From Okapia johnstoni (Eukaryota > Chordata > Mammalia > Artiodactyla > Giraffidae), in contig CM044310.1 of NCBI GenBank assembly GCA_024291935.2, positions 121,964,213 to 122,028,212 on the forward strand: a DNA stretch of 64,000 nucleotides. The letters are read 5' to 3'. This document shows, one piece after another, positions 19,001 to 21,515 of this stretch. Position 1 is the first letter of the stretch; every line of letters begins with the position of its first letter. A model generated the notes under the pieces. The model had not been told where the DNA came from and made no database searches. It saw nothing but the letters and a program-made list of their open reading frames with translations. Made by a program: the position numbers and the translations under genes.

Positions 19001-21515
19001 CCTGTAGGTGCCCCCGTGGGCTGAGGTCACAGGACTCAAGGAGAACTCGGCCTGGTATCGCCCGTCTTGGTGCTCGGAGCGCAGACGCAGGGGGCGATGG
19101 GCTGACCCCTCCTTGGACAGAAGGAAAGTGTCCGTCCTGTCTCCTGACTGACACAGCAGGGTCACGTTCTCCCCCGGGGCCACCGAGGGGCCCGGCTGCA
19201 CCGAGAGCGAGGGGCTGTCTCCGAGCCATTCTGCAGAGAGGAAGGGGGTGAGGGCGCCGGGCCCTGGTTCTGGGCGAGACTCCGCGGGCCTCTCTGGACC
19301 CTCAGCGCTGCCTCTGTTTCTCCAAGTCTCTCCCCCCACCCCCGTCTCCCTCTGTCCCCCTCCCTGGGACCCTTCCCCCGGCCCAGCATCACCCCTGGGG
19401 CTCCCCCGGCAGGGCCTGTGCAGAGTCTGGTCCCTGACTGACCCGCTGGCTCCTCACCTGCGACCAGGAGCTCCAGGGGCTCACTGGGGGCCGACCACTC
19501 GGAGGAGAGGCTGCATCCACCATAGCATCTGTACCGGCCCCCGTGGACGATGCCCACCAGGCCCAGGGGAAAGTCGGCCTGAGAGAGCCCCCCCTGGGGA
19601 CTCCGGCCAGGGCGCAGGGGGAGGTCCTGTCCCCCCTCCTTGGACAGAGCGAACCTGTCGTAGCCGACGTCTGAGCGACACTGGAGGGTCAGGTTCTGTC
19701 CAGAGGTGACAACGGGGCCCTGCGGGGTCAGCAGGGAGGGCTTCCCTGACAGCCCTGGGGAGAGACGTGCGCTGGGTTGTTGGGACCGCTTCCCACGTGG
19801 ACCCCCTTCTCCTGGCCCGGCCCCAGGCCTCACCGTCTCTCAGTCTGTGTGTCTGTCCTGGAGCCCCACGCTCCTCTCCCCACCCTCTCACAGGGGCTCC
19901 CCTGGGGGCAGAGACCCCAGTACGTTGTCTTGTCTGCACAAATGTATGGGGTCAGGACGGGACTTCCTCACCTGGGACCAGGAGCTCCAGGGGTTTGCTG
20001 GGGGCCGACCACACCCGGGGGGTGTCCCTGTAAAAGCCGTAGCATCTGAACGTCCACCCGTGTCCGGGGGTCACGGGGCCCACGGGGAACAAGGCCTGGG
20101 TCTGCCCGCTGGGGCTTCGCTGTCCATCCAGCGTCCAGGAGAACATGTCTTCTCCTTCCTTGGTCAGAAGGAATCTGTTAAATCTCTGGTAGGAGCCACA
20201 CTGGAGGGTCACGTTCCCTCTCGAGGTCACTACAGGGCTCGGCAGGGCTGAGAGGCCGGGTTTGCCGTAGGCTCCTAGGAGAGAGGGAGGCAGCTTGATC
20301 CCTGGGGCTCCCACCCTTCCCTCCCCTCCCCAGGGCTGGGCTGGGAGAGGATCACCCCCTGAGAGCAGACCCCCTTCCAGAGGGCAGAGCCTGAGGCCCC
20401 CGAGTGTCCCTCACCTGTCACTACCAGCTCCAGGGGGTCGCTGGGGGCTGACCACACCCGGGGGCTGTCCCTGTAAAAGCCGTAGCATCTGAACGTCCAC
20501 CCGTGTCCGGGGGTCACGGGGCCCAGGGGGAACAGGATCTGGGTCTGCCCTCTGGGGCTTCGCTGTCCATCCAGCGTCCAGGAGAACTTGTCTTCTCCTT
20601 CCTTGGTCAGAAGGAATCTGTTAAATCTCTGATAGGAGCCACACTGGAGGGTCACGTTCCCTCCCGACGTCACTACAGGGCTCGGCAGGGCTGAGAGGCT
20701 GGGTTTGCCGTAGAGTCCTAGGAGAGAGGGAGGCAGCTTGTTCCCTGGGGCTCCCACCCTCCCCTCCCCCAGGGCTGGCTGAGAGCAGACCTGCTTCCTG
20801 AGGGCAGAGCCTGAGGCCCCCGAGTGTCCCTCACCTGTCACCACCAGCTCCAAGGGGTCACTGTGCTCTGACCAGCCAGCAGGGGTTCTGTAGTGGCAGT
20901 CATAGCTCCCTGTGTCATGCTTGCTCATCTGTGGGATGGCGAGCTGGGCCTTGTCCTTGGGTTTCAGTACGTTCTGTCTCTCCCAGAGAACCGAGCGTCC
21001 CTCTTTATCCAAACGGAACACCTGGGCCCCCGGCGTCCCCTGACACCAGATGGTCACACGGCTCCCCGAGGGGACCACAGAGCCCGGCTCAGCCCAGATG
21101 GTGGGTTTGGGGGGGGTCCCTGGAAGGGAATCAGAGTCGGGCTCATCAGGCAGCCCCCCAGGCCCCGGCTCTCAGCCCAGACCTCCCAGACGCCCTCGCC
21201 GTGAGCCCCGAGCTGCCATCCCCCTCTCCGCGGCCTGGGGGAGACCCTTGTCCCCATGAGAGGAGGGAGCTGGGCCCTGGGGACAGACTCACCGGCCTGC
21301 ACCTGGGTCCTCAGGCCCACACTCAGCCCTGGAAGAGAGAGCCCTGTGAGCGGTCTGCCCTCAGCTCTGAGCAGTGCTTCTCCTCTCCGGGAGCCTCCTG
21401 GGCCCTGGGGTCCCCTGAGGGAGCAGGCTGGCTGGGGGGGTCACTCAAGACCAGGGCTCCCCCTGCCCCTTCTCATCTCACCGAGGCAGAGCAGGGCGAT
21501 CAGGGTTGGGGTCAT
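15718..21515 (-). CDS. LILRB-like: Leukocyte immunoglobulin-like receptor, inhibitory type, five Ig domains
   Basis: A type I surface receptor of leukocytes. Family members bind MHC class I and other ligands and signal through tyrosine motifs. Thirteen coding exons fit with GT/AG sites and matching phases: 21482-21515 and 21293-21328 (signal peptide, the 36-bp exon), 20835-21119 (D1), 20415-20717 (D2a), 19972-20274 (D2b), 19458-19754 (D3), 18928-19230 (D4), 18260-18307 (stalk), 17449-17583 (TM), 17069-17144, 16952-16989 (38 bp), 16701-16753 (53 bp), 15718-15837. They give about 676 aa. Each Ig domain has its cysteine pair and, in most, WSxPS-type ends; D2a, D2b, D3 and D4 have NVT or NLT glycosylation sites. 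The TM helix (about 547-570) has no charged residue, so no adaptor pairing is expected. The tail has ATYAAV (Y620) and a canonical ITIM VTYAQL (Y649). The middle ITIM exon of LILRB1 is absent, as in LILRB2. A third YAAL motif lies past the stop in another frame. Confidence 0.9.
19972..20414 (-). repeat. Tandem duplication, copy 2 (D2b exon plus preceding intron)
   Basis: A 303-bp exon and 140-bp intron are nearly identical to 20415-20834. The encoded domains differ at about 11 of 101 residues. The intron carries roughly 23 extra bases relative to the partner. Confidence 0.92.
20415..20834 (-). repeat. Tandem duplication, copy 1 (D2a exon plus preceding intron)
   Basis: A 303-bp exon and 117-bp intron are paired with 19972-20414. 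Exon ends and intron motifs such as 'gagggaggcagcttg' and 'ggcccccgagtgtccctcac' are shared, so the unit duplicated as intron plus exon. Confidence 0.92.

What the first reader, a model, noticed from the sequence alone, without database searches (positions are those of the whole stretch)
19972..20834. Five-Ig-domain LILR made by tandem duplication of the D2 exon with its intron
Human LILRs have two or four Ig domains and mouse PIRs six. Here exons run D1-D2a-D2b-D3-D4. D2a and D2b are the same length (303 bp), differ at about 11 of 101 residues, and share their upstream introns, so the event is young and copied intron plus exon. Phase 1 at both ends keeps the frame open, and no stop appears in any of 13 exons. 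An extra D2 would move the ligand-binding D1-D2 tip away from the membrane and could offer a second interface.
Basis: partly seen in the sequence, partly recalled or inferred. Interest (0 to 1): 0.75.

Follow-up and report, generated by a model that had tools for sequence, protein, structure and literature searches.

The report
Immune receptor gene with repeated domain
A ruminant immune-receptor gene of the LILR family appears to have gained a fifth antibody-like domain through a small internal duplication that left the reading frame open, a new variation on a family whose domain number is already known to differ between species.

Summary
On the minus strand an LILR gene (12 coding exons, 643 residues) reads leader-D1-D2a-D2b-D3-D4-TM-tail with GT-AG introns and phase-1 Ig exons. 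Two paralogs in the same assembly have one D2 each; against them the window gene carries an extra 443-bp tandem unit. The unit is not simply intron plus exon: its junction lies in a 14-bp block (20426-20439) shared by the 3' ends of the D1 and D2 exons, so D2a is a chimera with D1's last residues (LELVVTG), donor and intron. The copies differ at 20 of 406 aligned sites, the other pairs at 28-32 of 406-425, so the event is moderately, not very, young. A neighbouring two-domain gene (D1-D4) switches from D1 to D3 sequence in the same exon end, so these ends may be a repeated place of in-frame domain gain and loss. One correction: the last exon is frameshifted against paralog A and loses the distal ITIM; VTYAQL remains. 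None of 197 related proteins examined has D1-D2-D2-D3-D4; 12 have adjacent D2s. Expression is untested.

The parts
21482..21515 (-). leader exon 1 (start codon)
   Evidence: ATG, 34 nt, donor gtgag; 52 of 56 aligned nt (with flanks) identical to paralog A
21293..21328 (-). leader exon 2
   Evidence: AG/GT sites; LSVGLRTQVQAG as in relatives
20835..21119 (-). D1 Ig exon (285 bp, phase 1)
   Evidence: Pfam Ig_2 and Ig_3 best stretches lie here, over the curated cut-offs
20718..20834 (-). D1-D2a intron (117 bp; lacks 19 bases present in its copy and in both paralogs)
20415..20717 (-). D2a Ig exon (303 bp, phase 1); body D2-type, last codons and donor D1-type (LELVVTG)
   Evidence: diagnostic sites: 11 of 12 D2-type before the block, 7 of 7 D1-type after it
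20426..20439 (-). 14-bp breakpoint block GACCCCCTGGAGCT, present at both the D1 and the D2 exon end of paralogs A and B
20275..20414 (-). D2a-D2b intron (140 bp), copy of the D1-D2 intron
19972..20274 (-). D2b Ig exon (303 bp, phase 1), with the D2-type tail (LELLVPG)
   Evidence: the reading frame holding it gave no Pfam match on its own
19458..19754 (-). D3 Ig exon
   Evidence: the reading frame holding it gave no Pfam match on its own
18928..19230 (-). D4 Ig exon
17449..17565 (-). transmembrane exon without a charged residue in the membrane stretch (inhibitory type)
   Evidence: 138 of 141 nt (with flanks) identical to paralog A
17069..17111 (-). cytoplasmic exon 1
16952..16989 (-). cytoplasmic exon 2
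   Evidence: 57 of 57 aligned nt identical to A
16701..16753 (-). cytoplasmic exon 3
   Evidence: 75 of 77 nt identical to A
15718..15837 (-). cytoplasmic exon 4: ITIM VTYAQL kept; gaps of 8 and 7 bases against A shift the frame, ending at a TAA and losing the distal SEYAAL motif

Best explanation
The window holds an inhibitory-type LILR (LILRB-like) gene with five Ig domains, D1-D2a-D2b-D3-D4. It arose from a four-domain gene by unequal exchange, or an equivalent replication slip, between the homologous 3' ends of the D1 and D2 exons. This added a 443-bp unit made of the D1 exon end, the D1-D2 intron and most of the D2 exon. Because the breakpoint sits at the same codon in both exon ends, splice sites, phase and linkers are kept: D2a ends in D1's linker and donor, so each D2 is still preceded by a D1-type linker. 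Shown: sequence anatomy, breakpoint, copy relations, open frame. Inferred: the gene is transcribed with both D2 exons, the protein reaches the leukocyte surface, it signals through the remaining ITIM, and the added domain lengthens the ectodomain and offers a second D2 surface. Symmetric phases would also allow four-domain splice forms.
For: Twelve coding exons with GT-AG introns and a continuous 643-residue reading. Paralogs A and B each align to the window gene with the D1-tail-to-D2-tail stretch used twice. The 14-bp block is intact at both exon ends of A and of B and occurs once in the window gene, at the junction. Sites that separate D1 ends from D2 ends: before the block D2a is D2-type at 11 of 12, after it D1-type at 7 of 7. 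Variable sites group D2a with D2b against A and B at 7, the two other splits at 1 each. In a protein tree of 57 D2 rows (53 from 40 of the 197 proteins, chosen by me, plus four of this genome) D2a, D2b, A and B form one group (99/94) apart from bovid and cervid D2s. A neighbouring two-domain gene shows the matching kind of event in the same exon end.
Against: No transcript or read data were available. The frameshifted last exon loses one ITIM. dN/dS between D2a and D2b is 0.65 over the whole exons (14 nonsynonymous, 7 synonymous) or 0.80 without the ends, so constraint is not demonstrated. The protein tree weakly places D2b with A and B rather than with D2a (95/72, below the 95/80 mark), and the nucleotide split is unrooted. 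One of the 12 diagnostic sites before the block is D1-type.
Confidence: 0.75

Rival explanations
1. The five-domain gene is what remains of a six-domain PIR-like gene (D1-D2-D1'-D2'-D3-D4) from which D1' was deleted by recombination between the ends of D2 and D1'. The junction would look the same.
For: Six-domain proteins of that order are common among the relatives: 42 of 197 examined, among them cattle, buffalo and deer models; cattle six-Ig LILRs are in PMC3317502. The junction fits equally. The weak 95/72 placement would suit an old D2a.
Against: D2a and D2b group with the single D2s of the sister genes and not with the first or second D2 of the cattle and buffalo six-domain proteins. Only four D2 exons above 80% identity were found in the assembly, two of them here and two in single-D2 genes (counts are lower bounds); the matching search for D1 exons did not complete. 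It needs two events instead of one.
Confidence: 0.12
2. Assembly artefact: two alleles or paralogs joined so that one D2 appears twice.
For: Read depth and long reads could not be inspected; LILR clusters can be misassembled (PMC6775213 suspects this for a sheep assembly, passage read).
Against: The copies differ at 20 of 406 sites and by two indels, a lot for alleles. The junction is a base-exact chimera inside a homology block. The window has no N. One search showed no other place with a single-D2 version of this gene, within its lower-bound counts.
Confidence: 0.07
3. The gene is a decaying or weakly constrained copy, or is spliced to four domains, so the fifth domain has no role. (This concerns function and does not exclude the origin given above.)
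For: Frameshift and motif loss in the last exon; dN/dS 0.65-0.80 between the copies; paralog B is a pseudogene (TGA in D2; no TM or tail exons recognised in its 9.9-kb locus).
Against: All five Ig exons, both leaders and the TM exon are open with intact splice sites. No indel lies in the 278 aligned D2 exon bases of the two copies, whereas two lie in the adjoining intron, a small sample.
Confidence: 0.25

Closest known systems
Four-domain LILRB-type genes of ruminants (paralog A here; database proteins named LILRB3 or LILRA6)
   Same: Leader, D1-D4, uncharged TM, split tail, phase-1 Ig exons; in database relatives D3 is up to 91% and D4 up to 93% identical
   Different: One D2; paralog A keeps both motifs VTYAQL and SEYAAL
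Six-Ig PIR-like LILRs (mouse and cattle in PMC3317502; cattle, buffalo and deer models)
   Same: Extra Ig domains made by internal duplication
   Different: They repeat the D1-D2 pair; here only D2 is repeated, with a chimeric tail
Six-Ig LILRs of felids, aardwolf and striped hyena (PMC10206138, passages)
   Same: Domain gain inside the ectodomain of one LILR
Predicted proteins with adjacent D2s, e.g. muntjac P0136 (D1-D2-D2-D4), dolphin Sousa P0025 (D1-D2-D2-D3-D1-D4), guinea-pig isoform P0060 (D1-D2-D2-D3-D4-D4)
   Same: Two D2-type domains in a row
   Different: None of the 12 such proteins has the D1-type VVTG tail on the first D2: ten end in S-G or P-G, two in I-T-G; overall order differs; all are predicted models
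Two-domain gene between paralog A and this gene (L012), probably FCG2R
   Same: Same cluster; architecture changed at the same Ig exon end
   Different: It lacks D2-D3 (D1 body joined to a D3 tail) instead of having an extra D2; the name rests on its Ig1+Ig4 structure and place, as given for goat in PMC6775213 (passage)

Membership tests
LILR | C2-type Ig domains closest to LILR D1-D4 | tested here: met
   (D1-D2a): best of 89 solved-structure matches are mouse PIR-B, human LILRA6, LILRB3, LILRB1, LILRB2. Ig families over cut-off for the frames holding D1-D2a and D4; the frames holding D2b and D3 gave no Pfam match; all five domains match annotated LILRs
LILR | Gene layout: two leader exons, phase-1 Ig exons, TM and split tail exons | tested here: met
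LILR | Location in a cluster of LILR-like Ig genes | tested here: met
   of 34 matching places all but one lie within about 0.46 Mb on the same contig (one is on C28)
LILR group 2 (ruminant clade) | Phylogenetic place among group-2 LILRs | not tested
   Likely from the matches to LILRB3/LILRA6 and to the FCG2R-like neighbour, but no group-1 reference was put into a tree
LILRB (inhibitory) | No charged residue in TM and at least one ITIM in a long tail | tested here: met
   TM stretch LTWYLSVLIGVSVTFVLLLLVLLVLFL; ITIM VTYAQL; the second motif is lost
Canonical four-Ig LILR | Exactly D1-D2-D3-D4 | tested here: not met
   D2 present twice
Six-Ig PIR-like receptor | D1-D2-D1-D2-D3-D4 | tested here: not met
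   one D1 exon only
LILR function | Expression on leukocytes, ligand binding, phosphatase recruitment | not testable with these tools
   No transcript or protein data

The most novel reading that the evidence does not exclude
The nearly identical 3' ends of LILR Ig exons act as a recurrent exchange point at which whole Ig domains are added or removed with frame, donor site and linker preserved. In one cluster it produced both a functional five-Ig inhibitory receptor with two D2 surfaces (this gene) and a two-Ig receptor (the FCG2R-like neighbour).
Probability: 0.35. Interest if true: 0.55.

Novelty: new variant of a known kind. Interest (0 to 1): 0.38.

Why it matters
LILRs differ between mammals in domain number. 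Here the base-level route is readable: a 14-bp block at the end of two Ig exons explains a clean gain of one domain, and a neighbouring gene shows a loss using the same exon end. If expressed, the receptor would be a natural test of what an extra D2 does to reach and ligand binding.

Tried and rejected
Six-domain ancestor with loss of D1': kept as a rival, disfavoured by the D2 tree and. Assembly duplication: disfavoured by 4.9% divergence and the chimeric junction. First D2 and D1 trees: paralog B's D2 (and A's D4 in the printout) were translated in a wrong frame by my script; the D2 tree was redone, where I also left out three proteins used (P0006, P0048, P0119). The D1 tree (W_D1 pairs with B_D1, A_D1 apart) fits but is not used as evidence. 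An earlier count said that all adjacent-D2 proteins have D2-type tails; the right count is ten of 12. Species: not identified; the matches suggest a ruminant near bovids, but none of the 120 proteins listed is near-identical and that database is clustered at 90%. No structure prediction was made: the spliced tandem is not a plain reading of the window, which is what the tool takes. Dating: with a neutral rate recalled from memory (about 2.2e-9 per site per year) the copies would be of the order of 10 million years old; gene conversion between them would make this too young. Papers: PMC3317502 (outline, results section and passages), PMC6775213, PMC10206138, PMC6182393, PMC3972465 (passages only); all others were seen only as search listings. 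Searches that might have shown a five-Ig LILR in print listed none that I recognised as such; I opened only the papers named, and the 'five Ig' passage in PMC3972465 concerns cadherin.

Full report
What is there. The gene is on the minus strand. Its splice model gives 12 coding exons and 643 residues: leader 1 (21482-21515), leader 2 (21293-21328), D1 (20835-21119), D2a (20415-20717), D2b (19972-20274), D3 (19458-19754), D4 (18928-19230), TM (17449-17565) and four tail exons (17069-17111, 16952-16989, 16701-16753, 15718-15837). All introns are GT-AG and every Ig exon begins and ends in phase 1. The solved structures closest to D1-D2a are mouse PIR-B and human LILRA6, LILRB3, LILRB1 and LILRB2. 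Pfam recognises Ig domains in the frames holding D1-D2a and D4, but gave no match for the frames holding D2b and D3. The TM stretch has no charged residue and the tail carries VTYAQL, so this is an inhibitory-type LILR.

The duplication. D2a and D2b are 94% identical over 300 nt at 443 bp spacing and differ at 11 of 100 residues. The window's assembly was searched with D2a: of 34 matching places (64 candidates scored, counts being lower bounds) four exceed 80% identity, namely D2a, D2b and one D2 in each of two paralogs. A matching search with D1 was sent 14 times and never answered. Paralog A (L009, minus strand, about 47 kb away) is a four-domain gene whose exons, with the last one checked separately, are open. 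Paralog B (L010, plus strand) has a TGA in D2, and no TM or tail exons were recognised in the 9.9 kb fetched. For B, window 22500-20409 matches B 623-2738 and window 20454-17720 matches B 2254-4984, so B 2254-2738 is used twice; A shows the same overlap.

The breakpoint. Aligning both units with A and B shows that D2a is D2-like up to GACCCCCTGGAGCT and D1-like after it (LELVVTG, D1 donor, D1-D2 intron). At sites that separate the D1 ends from the D2 ends of the three genes, D2a is D2-type at 11 of 12 before the block and D1-type at 7 of 7 after it. The block is intact at both the D1 and the D2 exon ends of A and of B, 439 bp apart, and survives once in the window gene, at 20426-20439. So the exchange took place between homologous positions of two Ig exon ends. 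By a simple pattern count in the 197 relatives, a tail ending in T-G precedes a D2 start (LSA) 144 times and a tail ending in A-G, S-G or P-G does so 22 times; a tail ending in S-G or P-G precedes a D3 start (LLT) 85 times. LELVVTG is thus a usable, not perfect, mark of a D1 end.

Age and selection. Between the blocks D2a and D2b differ at 20 of 406 sites (K2P 0.051); D2a-A 30 of 406, D2a-B 32 of 406, D2b-A 29 of 425, D2b-B 31 of 425, A-B 28 of 425. Seven variable sites unite D2a with D2b against A and B; one each supports the two other splits. The split is unrooted; if rates were even, the distances would put the root between the pairs. A protein tree of 57 D2 rows groups D2a, D2b, A and B (99/94) apart from bovid and cervid D2s, but weakly sets D2b with A and B (95/72). 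The duplication is therefore probably later than the split from A and B, and specific to this lineage. Whole-exon dN/dS for D2a-D2b is 0.65 with 14 nonsynonymous and 7 synonymous changes, and 0.80 without the exon ends, so constraint is not shown.

A second event of the same kind. Between paralog A and the window gene lies a gene in which only a D1-like and a D4-like exon were found (L012; 52% and 96% identical in protein to the window's D1 and D4). At sites that separate D1 ends from D3 ends, its first Ig exon is D1-type at 13, D3-type at 6 and neither at 4 of 23 up to a point about 32 bases before the donor, and D3-type at 24 of 24 from there through the donor into the intron. I read this as a loss of D2 and D3 by an exchange between the D1 and D3 exon ends. 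Structure and place fit FCG2R as described for goat in PMC6775213 (passages). Two changes of domain number in one cluster thus used the same part of an Ig exon, and in both the frame was kept.

What weakens the functional claim. The last exon has gaps of 8 and 7 bases against paralog A, net one base, so the frame ends at an earlier TAA and the distal motif (SEYAAL in A) is lost. One ITIM remains. No transcript data could be examined.

Is it known? LILR and PIR domain number varies: 2 to 6 Ig domains are cited in PMC10206138 (passages), with six-Ig receptors in cattle (PMC3317502, BL7 and BL10) and in felids, aardwolf and striped hyena (PMC10206138). Of 197 database proteins examined (the listed best 120 of 2864 and best 120 of 2248 matches, overlapping; only the 7923 and 7947 candidates sharing most words were scored), 82 are D1-D2-D3-D4, 42 are D1-D2-D1-D2-D3-D4, 12 have adjacent D2s and none is D1-D2-D2-D3-D4; labels are best matches to this gene's own domains and are approximate for distant species. 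None of the 12 has the VVTG tail: ten end in S-G or P-G and two in I-T-G. I file it as a new variant of a known kind.

Noticed in passing
window 9640-9740 (+): Fragment like the last tail exon of LILRs, in the opposite orientation, with a Cys in place of the ITIM tyrosine.
   Followed up: partly
window 13185-13450 (+): D1-like Ig fragment, opposite orientation, weak match (best 50% over 54 residues), probably a pseudogene remnant.
   Followed up: partly
L012 (G000 C6:121956500-121962500): Two-Ig gene made of D1 and D4 with a D1-to-D3 switch in the first Ig exon end; probably FCG2R.
   Followed up: yes
window 20275-21171 (-): The 117-bp D1-D2a intron is a multiple of three without a stop, so its retention would keep the frame.
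   Followed up: no
L009 D1 exon: Paralog A's D1 is only 258 of 309 bases (with flanks) identical to the window's D1 while its other exons are about 90-100%, suggesting that A is a mosaic.
   Followed up: no
window 38210-38325 (-): Two short matches to LILR-related models, the best 12 residues at 92% to sheep protein P0029; nature unclear.
   Followed up: no
window 23380-23660: Long C/T-rich low-complexity tract upstream of the gene.
   Followed up: no
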